Assembly: GCF_000143535.2 (NCBI RefSeq)
Contig: NC_037315.1
Span: 930,001 to 994,000 of the forward strand
DNA: 64,000 nt
Direction: 5' to 3'
From: Botrytis cinerea B05.10
Lineage: Eukaryota; Ascomycota; Leotiomycetes; Helotiales; Sclerotiniaceae
Shown here: positions 53,151-64,000 of the stretch, piece after piece
How the letters are laid out: every line of letters begins with the position of its first letter
Numbering within the stretch: position 1 is the first letter of the stretch
The notes under the pieces: generated by a model
Seen by the model: only the letters and a program-made list of their open reading frames with translations
The model's database searches: none
What the model was told of the DNA's origin: nothing
Position numbers and translations under genes: made by a program

Positions 53151-54218
53151 AGTAGAAGGTGATAGAGATTATATAAGAAAGTCTTTATATATATCATAGT
53201 CATAGTCAATCTAATAGCTATACTTAGTGATTGAAAGTGAATCACTATATAGCGATAGTAAGGTATAAGAATGTATTTGAGCTATAATATAATATAAGAG
53301 TTAAAGTAAAAAAGGAGAAAAAAAACAATGGATTTTTAGTTTATAAAAAAGAGAAGTTATAAGTCCTAATGTTGTTTGGTTATGCGACTCATAGGTCACG
53401 TGTTTCTCCGCGCATAATAGGTTTATTGCTATAGAATTTAATAAGATTTCGAAGATATATTAATATAATAGAGGGAATCTATCGAATAAGTTTTGAAGCT
53501 TTCAACTCTTTTAAAACTCTCAACTCTTTTAAAACTTTCAACTCTTTTAAAACTCTCAACTCTTTTAAAACTCTCAACTCTTTTAAAACTTTCAACTCTT
53601 TTAAAACTTTCAACTCTTTTAAAACTCTCAACTCTTTTAAAACTTTCAACTCTTTTAAAACTCTCAACTCTTTTAAAACTTTCAACTCTTTTAAAACTCT
53701 CAACTCTTTTAAAACCTTCAACTCTTTTAAAACTTTCAACTCTTTTAAAACTCTCAACTCTTTTGAAACTCTCAATTCTTTTAAAATTTTCAATTCTTTT
53801 AAAACTTTCAATTCTTTTATAGCTCTTATAGCTTTTGAGAATAAAAGCTCTAAAGGGAATAGTTTTATTATAATATATTAATATAAAATTAATATTAAAT
53901 CGATTATTTATTCAATATAAAGTTTTTATATTATATATATAACTTTATTTTCAAAAGAATATTAATAAGGAATTAATAAAGAGTCTTCTTATACTCTTTT
54001 ATACCCTATTATAGACTAGTTGTTATCTTATATATATATATATATATATTCTTTATAAATGAGAAGATAGAAGAAAGATGAGGAGGGATTCGAAAGTAAA
54101 ATATATTTTTACCTATTTTTATTTTTATTTTTTTATATAGTTAATTATATAAAAGAAAAACCAATAGTGACTTATAAAAAATATAGAATTATATCTATCT
54201 ATGATTTATATATATATC
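53151..54218. other. AT-rich block between LTR fragment and Gypsy element
   Basis: Very AT-rich (notably 53820-54210), with a (TA) run near 54033-54048 and the 18-bp minisatellite. No gene. Composition is compatible with repeat-induced decay of older insertions, which is inference. Confidence 0.5.
53499..53822. repeat. 18-bp minisatellite, 18 copies
   Basis: Unit ct(c/t)tcaactcttttaaaa. Units differ almost only by C/T (G/A) changes, and the last four are the most diverged. The unit length is a multiple of three and lacks stops, so both strands stay open (LSTLLK and KELRVL/KELKVL hexapeptides), but no sign of real coding exists. Confidence 0.9.
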
Positions 54219-54698
54219 TGTTACGACGGATTGGTAACAGGTCAACAGAAGTCACGGGACAACAGATCAATCTTGGAATTAAGAGGAATATAACTTTGCA
54301 AACTTCTCGCGAAGTTATATTTAGGATTAGAAATGTCCTAGGGGACTAATTTCAGGGATAAGAACGATAAGCTAAGACATTGGAACTCACATGACTTGGG
54401 CACGTGATGGAGCGTCAGGGAGCGCCAGCGCTCCTGGAGCGCAGTGCGATCCATTGCGATCCATCATGTTGAGAGTATTCGGGGATTAGCATACTGAGGA
54501 CGAAGATCTATATAAGGGAATGGGTTTCATTATAATGTAGAGCTTCGTGCTCAAGAACAATCATTAGTTTCATTACTATAGTTACGAGAATTGCAACCCG
54601 TTACAACCTTATTGAATTCCTACTTGAAGTCTAGTCTAAAACCACCTCGAGAGATCTCTAGACACTTCCACGTGACCCTAGAGGCAGCTCCTGTAACA
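54219..54698 (+). repeat. 5' LTR, 480 bp, short-U3 variant
   Basis: TGTTACGACGGATT start, TGTAACA end. From the TATA box (about 54509) to the end it is nearly identical to the 3' LTR. Upstream it lacks a block of roughly 130 bp present in both other LTRs and has its own sequence before the TATA box. Confidence 0.9.
54509..54555 (+). promoter_or_regulatory. LTR TATA box and probable start of the element RNA
   Basis: TATATAA at 54509-54515 is followed 38 bases later by GTGCTCAAG (54547-54555). That site is conserved in all three LTRs and is complementary to the primer-binding site, which points to an RNA 5' end near 54545. Confidence 0.55.
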
Positions 54699-54708
54699 CT
54701 TTGAGCAC
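54699..54708 (+). other. Primer-binding site, self-priming type
   Basis: Directly after the 5' LTR stands ctttgagcac. TTGAGCAC (54701-54708) is the exact reverse complement of GTGCTCAA in the LTR at 54547-54554. No TGG-starting tRNA complement is seen here. This is the arrangement known from Tf1/sushi elements, where the RNA 5' end primes minus-strand synthesis. Confidence 0.55.
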
Positions 54709-54749
54709 CATTTCTGCTTCAAGTACCGATTCGATAACCAACCGCTAAT

Positions 54750-57700
54750 ATGGCATCCAGAGCTACCGCCACAGGTCAGCCTACCGGAGATACCAACGAC
54801 ATCGAGATGACCGATGCCCCAAAGGAGATCACTATCAACGAAACCCTTAAGATCGCCTTACCAGACAAGTACCAAGGTAGTCGACAAGAGCTCGATACTT
54901 TCCTCTTACAACTTGAGATCTACTTTCGATTCAATGAGGACAAGTTCACTACCAAGGAATCCAAGAGTATATGGGCCGCATCATACCTTCGAGGTGAAGC
55001 AACCAAATGGATCCAACCATATTTGCGCGACTATTTCGAGCATGACGATAAGGATCGCATGCAACCCACCCGAACAATCTTCAATAGCTTTGAAGGATTT
55101 AAGACAGAGATTCGTAGAATCTTCGGAAATTCCAACGAGCTAGAGGTAGCGGAAGATAAGATCTTCAACCTCAAGCAGACAGGATCAGCATTGAAATATG
55201 CTACGGAATTTCGAAGATACGCTGGAACAACCAAGTGGGACGAAATCGCTATCATGAGTCACTACCGCAAGGGACTCAAACCAGAAGTCAGACTGGAATT
55301 AGAAAGATCTGCCGAGAGTACAGATCTGAACGATCTAATTCAGGACTCCATCGAATCAGATGATCGTCTCTACAGATATCGACAAAGCCAGAGATCATAC
55401 AAACCCCAAGGAAATCAGAAGCAAGGGCGTTACCGCAAGAATGAGGGTAGACCACGTTACAATCCACAAAGATACGGAGACCCCATGGAACTAGACGCTA
55501 CGCACTACACAAACGGGAACGATGACTCAGAAAAGAGACGAAGACGAGAAAACAACTTATGCTTTGAATGTGGAAAAGCAGGGCACCGAGCAGCAGACTG
55601 CCGAAGCAAGAAGACAGGAGGAAAAAGGGGCAACTTCAAACCTAAGTTCGGCAAAGGCCAACTTAACGCTACCTTTACAATCCCAGAAAACCCAACTAAA
55701 TCCGAAAATACTGAGACTTTCACCGTTGAGGAATTCCAGCAATTACTAAAGGAATTACCACGAAATAAAGAGGGCATGAATGCAATAGACTTATGGGAAC
55801 AAGAGTATTACAGAACCCCAACACCCTCTGTGACAGAAGAAAGTCACCAGGACGAGGCAGAAGCGGACCACGCCACGATGAGCTGGACAGCTTGCTATGA
55901 TGAATTCTGCGGAATCCATCGATCAGATAAAGAAGCAACCGGATGGTTCCCCAAGAAAAGGAAGACGAAGAACCATCAGAATAATGTAACATGCACGGAT
56001 TTAACTTCAAATATAACTTCGCGAAAAGTTCGCAAAGTTACCCAGCAGTTGAATGCTACGGGACAAGCAGGACAGATATACTGCAAGGTTCAGATAAATG
56101 GACACATACAATCAGCCATGATAGATTCAGGGGCTACAGGAAATTTTATTGCACCAGAAGCTGCAAAGTACTTGGAAATACCACTTCAGACGAAACAATA
56201 CCCCTATCGATTGCAGTTAGTTGACGGACAGCTAGCAGGGTCTGACGGAAAGATTTCGCAGGAGACAATCCCAGTACGAATGGGCATAACCCAACATACA
56301 GAGGTTATACAGCTTGACGTTGTGCCATTGGGCCAACAACAGATCATCTTAGGAATGCCATGGTTGAAGGCACATAATCCGAAAATAGATTGGGCACAAG
56401 GAATTGTGACATTTGATCAGTGCAAAAGCGGTCACAGGGACACGCTAGAGGCGTCCGCGAGACGTAACACGCGCCAAGGAGAGTTGAACGCGAACAACAC
56501 CGGCGACGTAGGACACCCAGTCCAGGGTCCTCCATTAAGAGCGAAGGCCAGTACACCTCCTCTACAAATGCAGAAGCCAACGACACGGCACGAAATCGCA
56601 ATCGAGGCAAAAGAAAGGCCTACGATACCAGAACAGTACAAGAAATATGAACATGTTTTCAAAGAACCAGGGATCCATGAGGCTTTACCGGAACACAAGC
56701 CATGGGATCATGAGATAATATTGGAGGAAGGCAAGATGCCTGTGCACACCCCAATTTATTCAATGTCAGCCGATGAGTTAAAAAGGCTCAGAGAATACAT
56801 CGACGACAATTTAGCCAAGGGATGGATCAGGGAATCCGCGTCCCAAGTGGCCAGTCCAACTATGTGGGTACCCAAGAAGGATGGACCCGATAGACTAGTT
56901 GTAGACTATAGAAAGCTTAACGCACTCACTAAGAAGGATCGATATCCACTTCCATTAGCTACGGAATTAAGAGATCGATTAGGCGGAGCTACGATATTCA
57001 CCAAGATGGACCTACGTAATGGTTACCACTTGATCAGAATGAAGGAAGGCGAAGAATGGAAAACCGCTTTCAAAACAAGATACGGGCTATACGAGTACCA
57101 AGTTATGCCGTTCGGGCTAACCAACGCACCAGCTACTTTCATGAGGCTTATGAACAATGTGTTGTCACAATATTTGGATACTTGCTGTATATGCTACTTG
57201 GACGACATCCTAGTATATTCAAACAACAAGGTTCAACACATTAAGGACGTTAGCAGCATCCTCGAAAGTCTATCCAAAGCAGACTTGCTGTGCAAACCAA
57301 GCAAATGCGAATTCCATGTCACAGAAACAGAATTCTTGGGATTCACCGTATCAAGCCAAGGGCTCAAGATGAGCAAAGACAAGGTTAAGGCAGTGCTCGA
57401 ATGGAAGCAGCCGACCACAATCAAGGAAGTACAATCCTTTCTAGGATTTGTCAACTTCTATAGAAGATTTATCAAGGGTTATTCAGGGATTACTACACCC
57501 TTGACCACGTTAACCAGAAAAGATCAAGGAAGCTTCGAATGGACTGCCAAAGCACAGGAGTCATTCGATACACTCAAACAAGCAGTGGCAGAAGAACCAA
57601 TACTGTTGACTTTTGACCCAGAGAAAGAAATCATAGTGGAAACGGATTCCTCAGATTTCGCTATAGGAGCAGTTCTGAGCCAACCGGGCCAGAATGGAAA

Positions 57701-59618
57701 ATACCAGCCAATCGCATTCTACTCCCGAAAACTATCACCAGCCGAGTTGAATTACGAGATATATGACAAAGAATTACTGGCGATAGTCGATGCATTTAGA
57801 GAATGGCGAGTATATTTGGAAGGATCGAAATACACAGTACAGGTGTATACAGATCATAAGAACTTGGTTTACTTCACCACAACGAAGCAGTTAAACAGAC
57901 GACAGGTCAGATGGTCGGAGACCATGGCCAACTACAATTTCAGAATTTCATATGTCAAAGGATCAGAAAACGCTAGAGCCGACGCTCTTAGCCGAAAACC
58001 AGAATATCAAGAAAACAAAACGTACGAGTCATACGCTATATTCAAGAAAGACGGCGAATCACTGGTCTACAATGCACCACAGCTTGCAGCAACACACCTG
58101 TTGGAAGACAACCACCTCAGAAAACAGATTCAATCACACTACGACAAGGATGCTACTGCCACACGCATACGCAAGACAATAGAACCAGGATTCACTATAG
58201 AAAATGATACCATATACTTTCATGGAAAAGTATACATTCCGAGTCAAATGACCAAGGAATTTGTGACGGAACAACATGGGTTGCCGGCACATGGACACCA
58301 AGGAATTGCAAGGACATTTGCAAGAATACGGGAAATCAGTTACTTCCCACGAATGAGAACGATAGTTGAAGAAGTTGTTGGAAATTGTGACACCTGCATA
58401 CGAAACAAGTCATCACGACATGCTCCGTATGGTCAGCTCCAGACCCCAGACATGCCTTCTCAGCCATGGAAGTCCATCACATGGGACTTTGTGGTCAAAC
58501 TACCACTCTCAAAGGATCCTACTACAGGAATTGAGTACGACGCGATACTCAATATAGTAGACAGGCTAACGAAATTTGCATATATGATACCATTCAAGGA
58601 AACATGGGATGCTGAACAACTAGCATATGTGTTCCTAAGGATCATAGTAAGCATACACGGAGTACCAGATGAGATAATCTCGGATCGAGACAAGCTCTTT
58701 ACCTCAAAATTCTGGACTACCTTATTAGCACTTATGGGTATCAAGAGAAAGCTATCGACATCTTTCCACCCACAAACAGATGGTCAAACAGAGAGGACCA
58801 ATCAGACAATGGAAGCATATCTTAGATGCTATGTAAATTATCGACAAGACAATTGGGTAGAGCTATTACCCATGGCACAGTTCGCATACAACACATCGGA
58901 AACGGAAACCACGAAAATCACACCAGCACGAGCTAATTTCGGGTTTAATCCACAAGCGTATAAAATCCCGATACCACAAGAAGTTAATGCCGAATCAGCG
59001 ATAGTACAAGTCGAACAGCTGAAAGACCTCCAAGAGCAACTGGCTCTTGATCTAAGATTCATATCTTCCAGAACAGCAGCGTACTACAATACGAAACGTA
59101 GTATGGAACCTACGCTTAAAGAGGGGGATAAAGTTTATCTGCTACGACGAAACATCGAAACCAAGAGACCAAGCAATAAACTCGACCACAGGAAACTAGG
59201 ACCATTCAAGATTGATAAGGTAATAGGAACGGTTAATTATCGATTGAAATTACCAGACACAATGAATATCTACCCAGTATTCCACATATCCTTGCTCGAA
59301 CCAGCACCACCAGGAGCGCCAAATGCGCCATTTACAGAAATTGAACCAGTCAACCCAAACGCCATATACGATGTCGAAACAATACTAGACTGTAAATACG
59401 TCAGAAACAAGGTCAAGTATTTGATCAAATGGTTAGACTACCCACATTCAGAAAACACATGGGAATTCAAGGAAGATCTCAGCTGCCCTGAGAAGTTACA
59501 GGCATTCCACCTGAAGTACCCACACCTGCCAATAAAGCCTCAATCTCAGCGTCAGACAACGGGGGCAACGAAGGATCAAAAGCGAAAGAATCATCGCCAG
59601 CAGCAACGGAGGAACTAG
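54750..59618 (+). CDS. Gag-Pol polyprotein of the Gypsy element, 1622 aa
   Basis: One frame, no frameshift between gag and pol. Gag occupies about residues 20-260 (capsid-like helices, YLRGEATKWIQPYL), with one CCHC zinc knuckle at 271-284 (CFECGKAGHRAADC). The aspartic protease has IDSGATGNF, with catalytic Asp at 459. Reverse transcriptase spans about 690-880: VDYRKLNALTKKDRYPLP, FGLTNAPATF and the YLDD box at 816-819. RNase H follows (VETDSSDFAIGAVLSQ, TDHKNLVYF). Integrase has the HHCC finger (His 1176, paired Cys 1213/1216) and a D,D-35-E triad at Asp 1246, Asp 1312 and Glu 1348, with FHPQTDGQTERTNQ around the Glu. The C-terminal chromodomain starts near 1540 (VETILDCKY, YLIKWLDYPHSENTWE) and should steer integration to marked chromatin. 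All catalytic residues are present. The last 47 codons overlap the antisense ORF. Confidence 0.95.
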   Translation: MASRATATGQPTGDTNDIEMTDAPKEITINETLKIALPDKYQGSRQELDTFLLQLEIYFRFNEDKFTTKESKSIWAASYLRGEATKWIQPYLRDYFEHDDKDRMQPTRTIFNSFEGFKTEIRRIFGNSNELEVAEDKIFNLKQTGSALKYATEFRRYAGTTKWDEIAIMSHYRKGLKPEVRLELERSAESTDLNDLIQDSIESDDRLYRYRQSQRSYKPQGNQKQGRYRKNEGRPRYNPQRYGDPMELDATHYTNGNDDSEKRRRRENNLCFECGKAGHRAADCRSKKTGGKRGNFKPKFGKGQLNATFTIPENPTKSENTETFTVEEFQQLLKELPRNKEGMNAIDLWEQEYYRTPTPSVTEESHQDEAEADHATMSWTACYDEFCGIHRSDKEATGWFPKKRKTKNHQNNVTCTDLTSNITSRKVRKVTQQLNATGQAGQIYCKVQINGHIQSAMIDSGATGNFIAPEAAKYLEIPLQTKQYPYRLQLVDGQLAGSDGKISQETIPVRMGITQHTEVIQLDVVPLGQQQIILGMPWLKAHNPKIDWAQGIVTFDQCKSGHRDTLEASARRNTRQGELNANNTGDVGHPVQGPPLRAKASTPPLQMQKPTTRHEIAIEAKERPTIPEQYKKYEHVFKEPGIHEALPEHKPWDHEIILEEGKMPVHTPIYSMSADELKRLREYIDDNLAKGWIRESASQVASPTMWVPKKDGPDRLVVDYRKLNALTKKDRYPLPLATELRDRLGGATIFTKMDLRNGYHLIRMKEGEEWKTAFKTRYGLYEYQVMPFGLTNAPATFMRLMNNVLSQYLDTCCICYLDDILVYSNNKVQHIKDVSSILESLSKADLLCKPSKCEFHVTETEFLGFTVSSQGLKMSKDKVKAVLEWKQPTTIKEVQSFLGFVNFYRRFIKGYSGITTPLTTLTRKDQGSFEWTAKAQESFDTLKQAVAEEPILLTFDPEKEIIVETDSSDFAIGAVLSQPGQNGKYQPIAFYSRKLSPAELNYEIYDKELLAIVDAFREWRVYLEGSKYTVQVYTDHKNLVYFTTTKQLNRRQVRWSETMANYNFRISYVKGSENARADALSRKPEYQENKTYESYAIFKKDGESLVYNAPQLAATHLLEDNHLRKQIQSHYDKDATATRIRKTIEPGFTIENDTIYFHGKVYIPSQMTKEFVTEQHGLPAHGHQGIARTFARIREISYFPRMRTIVEEVVGNCDTCIRNKSSRHAPYGQLQTPDMPSQPWKSITWDFVVKLPLSKDPTTGIEYDAILNIVDRLTKFAYMIPFKETWDAEQLAYVFLRIIVSIHGVPDEIISDRDKLFTSKFWTTLLALMGIKRKLSTSFHPQTDGQTERTNQTMEAYLRCYVNYRQDNWVELLPMAQFAYNTSETETTKITPARANFGFNPQAYKIPIPQEVNAESAIVQVEQLKDLQEQLALDLRFISSRTAAYYNTKRSMEPTLKEGDKVYLLRRNIETKRPSNKLDHRKLGPFKIDKVIGTVNYRLKLPDTMNIYPVFHISLLEPAPPGAPNAPFTEIEPVNPNAIYDVETILDCKYVRNKVKYLIKWLDYPHSENTWEFKEDLSCPEKLQAFHLKYPHLPIKPQSQRQTTGATKDQKRKNHRQQQRRN

Positions 59619-60057
59619 AAGCTTGTTCCTTTTCTCTCTCAATACGCTCATTCTCCAACCGCTGCTCCTCAGCTTCAAATTCCTCAAGGGCTTCAATTGT
59701 GTGAAGGTCATGCTGAAGCATCTTCCCAGCCTTCTCTCGCAAAACTCGCTGCTGACGACGAAGTCGAAGAATCTTGGCCATGGCCTCCTCCTCCTCGCGA
59801 CGAAGACGGTCTTCCTCGGAATTGACACGAGACCAGTCACCAGCAGAATGGCCGTACACATCACAGCGACCACTACCCACGCTCTTTATACATTCACCAC
59901 AACGTGCAGCATTTGGAAGAACTCGGCACTCGAGGTTCTTCTCCAAACATCGACTACACTTGTAAGACATAACGACACCTTTTTCCTTGGAACGAAAATA
60001 AATATTTTGGCGACTAGTAACAGATTTGGAAGTACGAATAACGGACATTGCAAACAC
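59479..60057 (-). CDS. Antisense ORF in the Gypsy element: Zn2Cys6-like plus coiled coil, 192 aa
   Basis: Runs opposite to gag-pol between the end of pol and the 3' LTR, overlapping the pol 3' end by 140 bases. Residues 34-65 have the spacing C-x2-C-x6-C-x8-C-x2-C-x8-C (YKCSRCLEKNLECRV, then ARCGECIKS and GRCD), which fits the fungal binuclear zinc cluster formula. A charged helix with heptad-like leucines follows, about 80-145 (RLRRQQRVLREKAGKML, then EEFEAEEQRLENERIEREKE), and then an acidic, Ser-rich tail (DPSLPPLSDAEIEALLAG). Starts at 60057, 60048 or 59970 (MSYKC) are possible. Transcription would have to come from the 3' LTR on the antisense strand. I recall a report of an extra gene (brtn, from memory) on Botrytis Gypsy3/Boty elements; this is probably it. 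Function unknown. Confidence 0.65.
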   Translation of the reverse strand: MFAMSVIRTSKSVTSRQNIYFRSKEKGVVMSYKCSRCLEKNLECRVLPNAARCGECIKSVGSGRCDVYGHSAGDWSRVNSEEDRLRREEEEAMAKILRLRRQQRVLREKAGKMLQHDLHTIEALEEFEAEEQRLENERIEREKEQASSSSVAAGDDSFAFDPSLPPLSDAEIEALLAGVGTSGGMPVTSQGS

Positions 60058-60121
60058 TACGGATGAAATAAATCAAGTGGGAAGACGTACTAATATAAAC
60101 GCTTGGGGCAAGCGCTAGGCT

Positions 60122-60134
60122 AAGAAGGGGATAG
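60122..60134 (+). other. Polypurine tract
   Basis: aagaaggggatag directly before the 3' LTR, the expected plus-strand primer; one T interrupts the purines. Confidence 0.7.
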
Positions 60135-60747
60135 TGTTACAACGGATTAGTAACAGGCTGTAGAATCACCAACGTATAGGCTATAATGGTATTATAGGCC
60201 TCAGTGATTCAGCTGCAGTATACCGGGGGACACTAGGCACCCAAGGAAAGCCTCAGGCATGTATATAGTATTAGTCATAGGATATCCTAGAAGCGTAGGA
60301 TACAGTTCCTAGGACAATAGGTCCTAGGAAGCACTGAACATAACTTTGCAAACTTTTCGCGAAGTTATATTAGTAATATCCCAGGGGATTAGCCCCAGGA
60401 TAACAGATAAGCTAGGATACGGAAGACACGGGAACAGGTATCACGTGATGGATCGTCCCATCAATCCCACCGATTATTATCAATGGGATCAGTGGGATCC
60501 CATCACTCCCACCGCTCCCGGTGAGTGGGATCGATGGGACAACAGAGTACGAAGGTCTATATAAGGGAATGGGTTTTCTTGTATGTAGAGCTTCGTGCTC
60601 AAGACAACAATCATTAGTTTCATTACTATAGTTACGAGAATTGCAACCAGTTACAACCTTATCGAATTCCTACTTGAAGTCTAGTCTAAACCACCTCGAG
60701 AGATCTCTAGACACTTCCACGTGACCCTAGAGGCAGCTCCCGTAACA
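60135..60747 (+). repeat. 3' LTR, 613 bp
   Basis: TGTTACAACGGATT to CGTAACA. Closely matches the solo LTR at 60905 in its first ~300 bases and the 5' LTR from the TATA box on. Between them lies an own cassette of inverted gtcccatc/gatgggac repeats. Confidence 0.9.
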
Positions 60748-60904
60748 TTAATCTCTTACTTCTAATTTATATAAAGATATTAGAAATATAATTAAATTTT
60801 AAAATCTTATATCTCTCTTTTCTTTTCTTATTCTCTTTCTAATTCTCTTTCTTAAATTTTTCTATAAATTCTAATTCAAATTCTAATATTGAAAAACATC
60901 TAAA

Positions 60905-61478
60905 TGTTACGACGGATTAGTAACAGGCTGTAGAATCACCAACGTATAGGCTATAATGGTATTATAGGCCTCAGTGATTCAGCTACAGTATACCGGGGGA
61001 CACTAGGCACCCAAGGAAAGCCTCAGGCATGTATATAGTATTAGTCATAGGATATCCTAGAATCTTAGGATACAGTTCCTAGGACAATAGGTCCTAGGAA
61101 ACACCGAGCATAACTTTGCAAACTTTTCGCGAAGTTATATTAGTAAGATCCCAGGGGGTTGGCCCCAGGACAAAAGAATAAGCTAGGACACCAAGAGTCA
61201 CGGGATTAGTGTCCCGTGATGGACAGCTCAGGAACGACAGCGCTCCAGGAGCGACCGGCTGTCCCAGCTGTCCAAGTGAGACGAAGATCTATATAAGGGA
61301 AGGGGTTTCATTATAATGTAGAGCTTCGTGCTCAAGAACAATCATTAGTTTCATTACTATAGTTACGAGAATTGCACCCAGTTACAACCTTATTGAATTC
61401 CTACTTGAAGTCTAGTCTAAACCACCTCGAGAGATCTCTAGACACTTCCACGTGACCCTAGAGGCAGCTCCCGTAACA
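60905..61478 (+). mobile_element. Solo LTR, 574 bp, with 5-bp target duplication
   Basis: TGTTACGACGGATT to CCGTAACA, flanked on both sides by ctaaa (60900-60904 and 61479-61483). A clean solo LTR left by recombination between the LTRs of a full copy. It keeps the TATA box and the GTGCTCAAG site. Confidence 0.92.
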
Positions 61479-64000
61479 CTAAAACAACTATACCTCAAAC
61501 ATTATATATTTGCTTACAAATACATCTTCAAATCTATCTTTATCAATTTTTTTCAATTCAATCAATTGACTCTATCATTATTATAAATCTTACCCTAAAA
61601 CTAATTAAACCATTAAAAAGCTTTCAATTGCTTTAATCTAATTAATTCTTTTTTAATCGAATTTTCTTTTCTTTTAAAATTGTATACTGAATTGAAATTT
61701 CAAACTTCCTCATCAATCAAAACAACCCTACCCTAACATCAGCATATTATTTATAATCAATCAAAAGAGGTTTTATAAATCTACAAATATAAAAATGGCC
61801 TGCTATATAGATATATGATTATATAATACATCAGTACTTTTCCACTTCGTTTGCTTCTACGAATCCATGATTACATAATACATCAGTACTTTTCCACTTC
61901 GTTTACTTCTACGAATTCATTATCAAGCCTCAGATAATCCATTAATCGATAGTGTTTATTCCATCTTCCTGTAGAAATCTTGACTGGTGCTTATTTTTGC
62001 TCGGGAGTCAGTCAGTGAGTGAGTGAGTGAGTGAGTGAGGCTTTTCAGTTGGATTTGAATTTGGATTTGGATTTGACACAAGTGACTCGAGTAGATAGGT
62101 ATCTAAGGTAGATAGGTATCTTCGCTACTCTTACTATCATATCCTTATCACAATAAGTATTTTTACCTATCCATCTATCTATCTGTCTGTCTGTCTATCT
62201 GCGTCATGCTTTTTTTACACAGTAGTTTCAGTATCCGTTTATAAAGTGGAGGACGGGGATAGATACTAGATACGTAGTCAGGTACGTACGTAGATAGAGG
62301 TCTTTTGCCCCTCTTTTAGGCTTTCATTTATTCATTCTTTCGGCTGTCAGGCTTTCCCCCTTGGCGGTTGGTTGGGCGTTGAGTGGAGGTTTTAGGGTTA
62401 GTTTTGTTTTGTTTTATGCGTGGAGGGATGGGATGTCCTAGATAGATAGATAGATAGATGGTGGTAGTATGTGTGTGTATGCATATATATGTAGGTATGT
62501 ATGTATAATTTGACGATGATGATGATGACGACGACGACGACAACAATGCTGATATGAATAGAGTGAACAGGGTAATGATATTCAGAATACTGATATGATA
62601 TGATATGATATGATAGTTATCAAGCATACCAAGATATTCTCTCCCGTCTACCCCGTCTAGCCATCCATCCATCCATCCTCATCTCAACCAGATCGATTTG
62701 CACAGTGTTGATTGAGCACTGATATCTATAGTTAATAGATATCTACAATACTAATGATAACTAACCAAAGATACTTTGCTGATCTGAGTGTGAGTTTGGG
62801 TGAGGATCTCGACTGTCTGTGTGTGGGGGGATAATGTGAATGTGAATGTGAATATGATAACAATTTTTGCATAGGTAGGTACGTATATAGTGGTAATGAA
62901 TATATAACTATGTTTTTTTTTATTGTGTGATACTTTGGAGTGATTTTTAGGTGTATACGATATGTGTGCATAGGTAGTTTTATTAACTAGCTTTGATCTT
63001 TGATCTTTGGGTTTATAAATTTGATCTTTATCAGAGCGTGAGAGTTTGATCTTGATCTTGATCTTGATTATGATCTTGATTTTGAGCTTGGACTCTGAAA
63101 GTTATGGCTTGTTTGTCTGTCTGCTTGCTTGCTTTCGTGGAGTTTGGTAGCATTGGATAAAGGAATACCTACAGACTTGGAGATGGTAAAGAAAGATATG
63201 CTTGCTTGGGTTCTTTCTGTCTGTTGGTTTTGCTGAATGCATATCGTATGAATGTGCGTATGGTATAGGGTCGTGTTTTATATGTGATGTGTAGGTAGTG
63301 CTAATATCCTTCTATCATATCCTCATATACGTATGTATTCATATACTCATAGTCAGTCTCAATCACATCCATCCTTTCACCATCAATCCCATAATCTCAT
63401 CCCGTCCCATACTCAACCGTTTCACCAATCCCTCACTCACCAACCCATTCGATTGTGTTGTCGTTGCATTGAAATTGTCACTGCAAACCCCAAGCACTGT
63501 TCCATTTCTGATACGTGAGTGGACTTCCCTAGACCCATTCCCTCGCTCCCTCCCTCCATCCATGGCTCCAGGAAAGATCTTTCAACCTATCAATGACGAA
63601 TGTCCAGGATGTGTTCGCGATGCTTGAAATACCGGTCACGGATCTTGCCTAGAATGGCTTGGGGAGAAGATATCTTGGACCCGAAAATGTCTTGGTGCTA
63701 AACTATTTATGGCATCAGGTGATGAGGGTTTTTCTGGACTTGCGCTGTGCTGTGTGTCGGTGGAGATGGAGTTGGAGGGGATTATGTAAGGTGGTTTGGG
63801 TTGGGTTGTGATTGGGTTTGGATGGATGGTTTGGATGGGAAGTTTGGTAAGCAGGTAGGTAAGTGGAAGGCAAGGAGGAAGGCAAGGAGGAAGGCAGGGA
63901 AGAAGGCCGGTGGGAAAGCAAGTGGAAGGCAAGGAAAGTAGAAAGGCAAAGCAGAAAGTAAGAAGGAAGGCAAGAAAACAAGAAAGTAAGAACGTAAGAA
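61479..64000. other. Gene-poor right end with microsatellites
   Basis: AT-rich to about 61950, then simple repeats: gagt x7 (62011-62039), gata at 62440-62458, gat/gac trinucleotides at 62512-62542, gatct(t) at 62990-63080, and an aaggc/aggaa-rich purine stretch from 63860 to the end. A C/T-rich leader-like stretch at 63360-63560 precedes an ATG at 63562 (MAPGKIFQPINDECPGC), which could be the first exon of a gene. Its frame stops after 21 codons and no following exon could be found, so it is not called. Confidence 0.45.

What the first reader, a model, noticed from the sequence alone, without database searches (positions are those of the whole stretch)
58228..58248. Pol frame contains, in antisense, the sequence of small-RNA effector Bc-siR5
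The 21 bases at 58228-58248 (start aagtatacattcc on the plus strand) are the exact reverse complement of Bc-siR5 as I remember it: a B. cinerea small RNA reported to enter plant cells and silence a host wall-associated kinase gene, and described as coming from LTR retrotransposon loci. If memory is right, this copy is a possible source locus, and its small RNAs must come from antisense transcription of the integrase region (HHCC finger side). An exact 21-nt match by chance in 64 kb is very unlikely.
Basis: partly seen in the sequence, partly recalled or inferred. Interest (0 to 1): 0.85.

Follow-up and report, generated by a model that had tools for sequence, protein, structure and literature searches.

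The report
Mobile-element source of a fungal siRNA
The 21 letters sit in an ordinary protein-coding stretch of a jumping gene present in many near-identical copies in the grey-mould fungus, so this copy cannot be singled out as the small RNA's source; the same jumping gene also carries a backward-facing, DNA-binding-like gene that seems to be exchanged between copies together with its own promoter.

Summary
It is no single locus: the genome holds 27 exact copies, all in near-identical surroundings, of the Boty-like/BcGypsy1 kind where read. It spans codons 1160-1167 of gag-pol, at the edge of the integrase H2C2 finger, and is no more conserved than its surroundings (49% of neighbouring 21-mers have as many exact copies). 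Identity with printed Bc-siR5 could not be tested (supplements closed). 'Must come from antisense transcription' is not supported: these siRNAs need BcRDR1 (PMC10766185, passages), so sense RNA suffices.

The element does carry an antisense gene, brtn (known). Not described in the passages I could read: its product has a six-cysteine, Zn2Cys6-like motif and exists in six old types, each beside its own short-repeat array upstream of the LTR TATA box (22 of 23 cassettes match), on gag-pol 97.4-99.7% identical between types. I read brtn as a promoter-specific self-regulator that moves as a cassette with its promoter. This is inferred, not shown.

The parts
58228..58248 (-). 21-nt stretch named in the finding; a small RNA of this sequence would be antisense to pol; codons 1160-1167 (KVYIPSQM) on the + strand
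54219..54698 (+). 5' LTR, 480 bp, type A
   Evidence: TGTTAC...GTAACA; matches at 100% the LTRs of the five type A copies
54401..54506 (+). type A repeat array (CGCTCC/GGAGCG and GCGATCCAT) between CACGTGA and the TATA-like box at 54507
54750..59618 (+). gag-pol in one open frame, 1622 aa: gag, CCHC knuckle, protease, RT, RNase H, H2C2, integrase core, SH3-like, chromodomain
58236..58415 (+). integrase H2C2 zinc-binding domain (residues 1163-1222)
58706..58862 (.). interval in which the copy passes from type A-like to type B-like sequence (recombination join)
   Evidence: A-like sites run to L037:5079, B-like sites start at L037:5235 (one later A-like site, 5754)
59479..60048 (-). antisense gene brtn, type B, 189 aa, six-cysteine Zn2Cys6-like motif, coiled coil, acidic C-terminal part; overlaps the 3' end of pol
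   Evidence: (homologue named 'Putative BRTN')
60135..60747 (+). 3' LTR, 613 bp, type B
60442..60555 (+). type B repeat array (TGGGAT/ATCCCA) upstream of the TATA-like box at 60556
60905..61478 (+). separate solo LTR, type A', flanked by the 5-bp duplication CTAAA

Best explanation
The 21 bases are an ordinary piece of integrase-coding sequence in a Boty-like (BcGypsy1) Ty3/gypsy retrotransposon of B. cinerea. Steps: (1) many near-identical copies, most with an open gag-pol, exist (shown here for sequence only). (2) Their sense RNA is copied by BcRDR1 and cut by Dicer into 21-22-nt siRNAs with 5' U (from papers for the class; inferred for this 21-mer). Nothing marks the site itself as specialised. 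The element also carries an antisense gene, brtn, which most likely encodes a Zn2Cys6-like regulator acting on the repeat array in its own LTR promoter; gene and array travel together as a cassette that is exchanged between gag-pol backbones (sequence types and mosaic copies shown; binding and regulation inferred).
For: 27 exact copies, 96-100% identical over 221 bases. All 20 copies read whole are LTR elements with gag-pol and an antisense ORF; 18 of 20 have gag-pol open to its end. BcGypsy1 is the subfamily said to bear brtn (PMC8365987 section 22). Site conservation is unexceptional: 27 of 40 copies exact, and 49% of 1,101 neighbouring 21-mers reach 27. BcRDR1 dependence: PMC10766185 passages. 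No milRNA-like single stem; no Rfam match at gathering thresholds in 54000-61500. brtn: open in 20 of 20 copies; 0 of 2,000 base shuffles open for each of 6 types; dS above dN in the 7 of 8 compared pairs whose N-terminal parts differ; six invariant Cys in 7 of 7 and the spacing in 25 of 31 aligned proteins, the window's included; type matches adjacent array in 22 of 23; arrays non-random in 6 of 6 types, P <= 0.004 against 1,000 base shuffles.
Against: Printed Bc-siR5 letters were not seen. No small-RNA reads could be mapped. In the 13 older copies the site mismatches less than average (11.7% against 21.0%; 5.7% of windows are as low), a weak hint of constraint, which may be the protein's. 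For brtn: Pfam Zn_clus scores below its cut-off (best E 0.07, 2 of 7 members); Foldseek found no match with E <= 0.001 and VIA Z for zinc-cluster chains is only 2.1; neighbouring sequences match by linkage anyway; one copy (L045) pairs protein C with array D; in 4 of 20 copies the 5' LTR array does not match the protein; the similarity-matrix test is not significant (51 of 720 permutations).
Confidence: 0.72

Rival explanations
1. Antisense transcription starting near the 3' LTR, for brtn, reads on through the integrase region and pairs with sense RNA, so convergent transcription supplies the dsRNA for the siRNA.
For: A conserved antisense gene ends 1.2 kb downstream of the site and points at it. 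PMC7264820 (passages) proposes this route for antisense genes of LTR elements in general.
Against: Retrotransposon siRNAs are lost without BcRDR1 (PMC10766185 passages), which pure convergent transcription would not need. I saw no report of an antisense transcript reaching 58228, but made no search for one.
Confidence: 0.2
2. One reading: the 21-mer is not Bc-siR5 and is just one of thousands of 21-mers in the element.
For: No held main text prints it. The site shows no special conservation, and 36% of antisense 21-mers in the 1.1-kb region begin with U.
Against: Element class, length, 5' U and species fit what papers say of Bc-siR5. My recall agrees, which is not independent.
Confidence: 0.1
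3. The 21-mer comes from a hairpin (milRNA-like) precursor on the minus strand.
For: The minus strand folds somewhat better than shuffles (z -2.1 to -2.8 in the three minus-strand stretches folded).
Against: The 21-mer spans the loop and 3' side of one small hairpin and the 5' side of the next, so it is not one arm of a stem. No Rfam match.
Confidence: 0.03
4. brtn and the LTR arrays are linked only because they are neighbours; brtn does something else (for example nuclear import or chromatin targeting) and the arrays bind host factors.
For: The protein's start and the array lie only about 0.3-0.4 kb apart; one mismatched pair exists (L045); permutation test 51 of 720; in 3 of 8 type pairs compared (those with type A or E) no conserved stretch separates the two.
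Against: In 5 of 8 type pairs compared, the two divergent islands are separated by 200 bases or more of 94-100% identity, so exchange does work between them and still 22 of 23 pairs match. A Zn2Cys6-like motif with a coiled coil is the layout of fungal DNA-binding regulators (recalled).
Confidence: 0.45

Closest known systems
Bc-siR5 / Bc-sRNA5 of Botrytis cinerea
   Same: Retrotransposon-derived, 21 nt, in the species of the window; the 5' U fits
   Different: Printed letters not seen here; 27 genomic copies, so no single source locus
Boty-like / BcGypsy1 elements with antisense gene brtn (Zhao 2011, not held; cited in PMC8365987, PMC7264820, PMC4227169)
   Same: gag-pol with chromodomain, antisense ORF between pol and the 3' LTR, species
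   Different: Six cassette types with matching LTR arrays, and the six-cysteine motif, are not described in the passages I saw
BcGypsy3 (PMC8365987)
   Same: Siblings as siRNA sources
   Different: The paper used a 4.98-kb internal part and a 258-bp LTR piece; here LTRs are 480-613 bp and the internal part 5.4-5.5 kb
Plant LTR elements with antisense ORFs (Grande, RIRE2, Retand; PMC7264820)
   Same: Antisense ORF between pol and 3' LTR
   Different: No promoter-array pairing in the passages seen
Fungal Zn2Cys6 regulators (PUT3, Pho7, HAP1, and chain 1cld, which I recall as LAC9)
   Different: Below the Pfam cut-off; weak structural scores; encoded antisense in a mobile element
Lambdoid phage immunity regions (repressor plus operators; recalled)
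   Same: Works-like idea: DNA-binding protein and its sites exchanged as one cassette
   Different: No homology tested or expected; function here untested

Membership tests
Bc-siR5 source sequence | Letter-for-letter identity with the published small RNA | not testable with these tools
   Original papers not held; no main text prints it; supplements closed
Bc-siR5 source sequence | Lies in a B. cinerea LTR retrotransposon, antisense strand starting with U | tested here: met
   class description
Bc-siR5 source sequence | 21-22-nt antisense reads at this copy | not testable with these tools
Ty3/gypsy chromovirus | gag, protease, RT, RNase H, integrase, chromodomain in that order | tested here: met
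BcGypsy1 / Boty-like | Antisense brtn between pol and 3' LTR | tested here: met
   20 of 20 whole copies and 3 further cassettes; homologue named Putative BRTN
BcGypsy1 / Boty-like | Falls in the BcGypsy1 clade of the published tree | not tested
   Reference sequences lie in supplements, which were closed
BcGypsy3 | 258-bp LTR and 4.98-kb internal region as cloned in PMC8365987 | tested here: not met
   LTRs 480-613 bp in the 17 copies measured, window 480 and 613 bp
Zn2Cys6 (Zn_clus) proteins | CX2CX6CX5-12CX2CX6-8C (spacing recalled) | tested here: met
   7 of 7 aligned proteins from six types have all six Cys; 25 of 31 aligned proteins, window included, by a slightly looser pattern
Zn2Cys6 (Zn_clus) proteins | Pfam PF00172 above its curated cut-off | tested here: not met
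   Window protein E 2.6, 8.7 bits against 21; best of 7 members E 0.07
Zn2Cys6 (Zn_clus) proteins | Binuclear-cluster fold | tested here: inconclusive
milRNA hairpin | Mature sequence in one arm of a single stem | tested here: not met

The most novel reading that the evidence does not exclude
The Boty-like elements fall into 'immunity groups': each carries an antisense-encoded Zn2Cys6-like protein that recognises a type-specific repeat array in its own LTR promoter and sets that promoter's output, and the protein-plus-array cassette is exchanged among nearly identical gag-pol backbones, so that related copies escape each other's control. The sense transcription that feeds siRNAs such as the one in the finding would then be set copy group by copy group.
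Probability: 0.35. Interest if true: 0.8.

Novelty: new variant of a known kind. Interest (0 to 1): 0.5.

Why it matters
The retrotransposon origin of such siRNAs is already known; what matters is that no single copy can be called the source, so small-RNA effectors of this fungus should be treated as products of a copy family. If the antisense gene really controls its own LTR in a type-specific way, it would be the switch on sense transcription of these elements, would give a function to an antisense gene that a review (PMC7264820, passages) lists as of unknown role, and would be a eukaryotic parallel to phage repressor-operator exchange. Each type's protein and array can be tested directly in yeast.

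Tried and rejected
Special conservation of the 21-mer: rejected. It is exact in 27 of 40 copies, as are 49% of neighbouring 21-mers. The lower mismatch in the 13 older copies (5.7% of windows as low) is weak.

Hairpin precursor: rejected. Rfam: nothing at gathering thresholds.

Looking for the printed letters: six spellings and five shorter spellings, two terms required with the species name as sixth term, found no paper. Weiberg 2013, Wang 2017, a DOI tried from memory as a tomato cross-kingdom paper, and Zhao 2011 are not held.

Testing Bc-siR3.1/3.2 on this element: not done, because their letters were in no text I saw.

Pairing with the AT5G50290 transcript: not done, no plant sequence at hand.

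Protein-array similarity matrix: r 0.57, 51 of 720 permutations as high, not significant.

Dropped before counts: homologue alignment A2 used 30 of the 34 proteins found plus the window's; P0030, P0031, P0033 and P0034 (short or remote) were left out before the 25-of-31 count. The homologues include proteins of the same fungus and are not independent. In the gag-pol comparison one of 20 copies (L035) was left out because it has indels. Divergence profiles were run for 10 pairs; the two with L045 are not in the 5-of-8 count. Array shuffles keep base composition only, not dinucleotides. The 3' cassettes of 4 of the 27 exact copies were not read.

Full report
What was checked. The 21 bases at 58228-58248 are present as described. 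They occur once in the window within three mismatches, and in none of 100 shuffles. The window is G000:C6:930001-994000 of a 42,630,066-base, 18-contig genome. That size fits B. cinerea B05.10 (recalled), and several close homologues of the antisense protein are named from Botrytis cinerea, one 'Putative BRTN'. The genome holds 27 exact copies of the 21-mer and none of its backwards control. A 221-base probe finds 40 places (40 of 42 candidates scored): the 27 with the exact 21-mer are 96-100% identical to the probe, and 13 others have 1 to 6 mismatches in the 21-mer.

What it is. The site lies in the single gag-pol frame 54750-59618, with Pfam matches from gag to chromodomain. It codes KVYIPSQM at residues 1160-1167, where the H2C2 finger begins (1163). 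The site is not special: of 1,101 21-mers in the surrounding 1.1 kb, 49% are exact in at least 27 of the 40 copies.

Is it Bc-siR5? I could not see the printed letters. Passages of PMC10766185 say Bc-sRNA5 is retrotransposon-derived, silences AT5G50290 (a wall-associated kinase), is lost in bcrdr1 mutants, and that a decoy RNA against Bc-sRNA3.2 and Bc-sRNA5 in plants reduced lesions. PMC10312686 passages place Bc-siR5 in extracellular vesicles and in plant AGO1. PMC8365987 (abstract, sections 5, 6, 22 and passages) names BcsRNA3.1, 3.2 and 20 as BcGypsy3 products, and its main text does not hold the names siR5 or BcsRNA5. It states that 29 of 48 retrotransposon effectors map to BcGypsy1 and BcGypsy3 and that BcGypsy1 bears brtn. 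The window element, with brtn and long LTRs, is therefore of the BcGypsy1 kind. If the letters are right, siR5 belongs to BcGypsy1, not to the much-studied BcGypsy3 (inference).

How the small RNA is most likely made. For the class, papers show dependence on BcRDR1 and on Dicer. A sense transcript is then enough; antisense transcription is possible but not required. The minus strand around the site folds into two neighbouring small hairpins with the 21-mer across their junction, which speaks against a milRNA. All of this is inferred for this exact 21-mer.

The copies. Of the 20 copies fetched whole (20 of the 27 with the exact site), 18 have gag-pol open to its end; two have early stops. For 17 of the 20 the simple LTR pattern found both LTRs; in 15 of these 17 the two LTRs are identical, and the two that differ are the window copy and L041. 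L047 also has unlike LTRs. Of the 15 with identical LTRs, 14 have matching 5-bp flanks (not L034), so most are young insertions. The window copy has a 480-bp type A 5' LTR, a 613-bp type B 3' LTR and unlike flanks, ATATC and TTAAT. Its gag-pol follows type A (83 of 95 informative sites against L034 and L031) and between 58706 and 58862 switches to mostly type B. It looks like a recombinant; the 21-mer lies in the type A part.

The antisense gene. Each of the 20 copies has an antisense ORF of 189-206 codons between pol and the 3' LTR, overlapping the pol end. It is the only one of six frames without a stop in 18 of 20 copies; the two type B copies have one further open frame. Base shuffles of six representatives were never open (0 of 2,000 each). 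In the pairs whose N-terminal parts differ (7 of 8 compared) synonymous change exceeds amino-acid change (for example A/A' dS 2.16, dN 0.23; C/D dS 1.06, dN 0.35); in several pairs dS is saturated. The six types are therefore old and kept as protein, while their gag-pol backbones differ by only 13 to 123 of 4,728 bases between types (19 of 20 copies compared). All seven aligned proteins keep six cysteines in Zn2Cys6 spacing, as do 25 of 31 in a wider alignment that includes Monilinia, Sclerotinia and Stromatinia proteins. The model has an N-terminal helix, two short helices at the cysteine pairs, long coiled-coil-like helices and a low-confidence C-terminal helix. Against this, Pfam Zn_clus is below its cut-off and structural matches are weak. 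So it is Zn2Cys6-like, and not filed as a Pfam member.

The matching arrays. Directly upstream of the LTR's TATA-like box each type has its own short repeats: A CGCTCC/GGAGCG, A' GACAGC/GCTGTC, B ATCCCA/TGGGAT, C 13-bp CCGACTCGACTTG, D 12-bp CCGATCGACTTG, E CTATCC/GGATAG. In each of 6 types the top six-letter repeat is rarer in base shuffles (P 0.000-0.004 of 1,000). The protein type matches the array of the adjacent 3' LTR in 22 of 23 copies read (20 whole plus 3 cassettes; 4 of the 27 not read) and that of the 5' LTR in 16 of 20. The exception at the 3' LTR is L045, protein C with array D; C and D arrays share repeats. In 5 of 8 type pairs compared, the protein's N-terminal half and the array are two islands of low identity separated by 200 bases or more of 94-100% identity; in the 3 pairs with type A or E the region between is divergent too. 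L041 shows a cassette exchanged within an insertion that kept its flanking duplication (5' LTR C, 3' LTR D, flanks CATTC). Linkage alone could still explain much of this, and the matrix test is not significant.

Known or new. That brtn exists, and that such retrotransposons make siRNAs, is in print. In the four held papers with the word brtn that I opened (PMC8365987, PMC7264820, PMC4227169, PMC5987419), the passages I saw mention no cysteine motif and no LTR arrays, and PMC7264820 says no clear similarity is described for such antisense products. Searches (10 of 684 listed; 15 of 126 listed; 10 of 10 listed) showed no paper in their listings that pairs brtn with Zn2Cys6 or LTR-promoter terms; PMC7772216 was listed for brtn and was not opened. 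Zhao 2011 itself was not readable, so priority is uncertain.

Verdict. The handed finding alone would score about 0.3. The cassette system raises the whole to 0.5.

Noticed in passing
window 54286-54321, 56009-56040, 60336-60371, 61106-61141: A near-palindromic 31-nt stretch in the LTR U3 has an inverted copy inside gag-pol (94-97% complementary). In one search the U3 copy was found in 18 of 20 copies (not in the two type E), the full gag copy in 6 of 20 (5 type A copies and the window copy).
   Followed up: partly
window 60905-61478: Solo LTR of type A' with the perfect flanking duplication CTAAA, 157 bases after the 3' LTR of the element.
   Followed up: yes
L041, L045, L047: Further mosaics: unlike LTRs in L041 and L047, and protein/array mismatch in L045.
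   Followed up: partly
L028-L030, L051-L060: All 13 older copies carry the same A at the 16th base of the site, where the 27 young copies have G, so in this genome the exact 21-mer is private to the young group.
   Followed up: no
G000:C13:52800-53800 (L065): Several LTR pieces, of types B and C, in both orientations packed within about 1 kb.
   Followed up: no
window 53500-53900: A tandem array with an 18-base period just upstream of the element.
   Followed up: no
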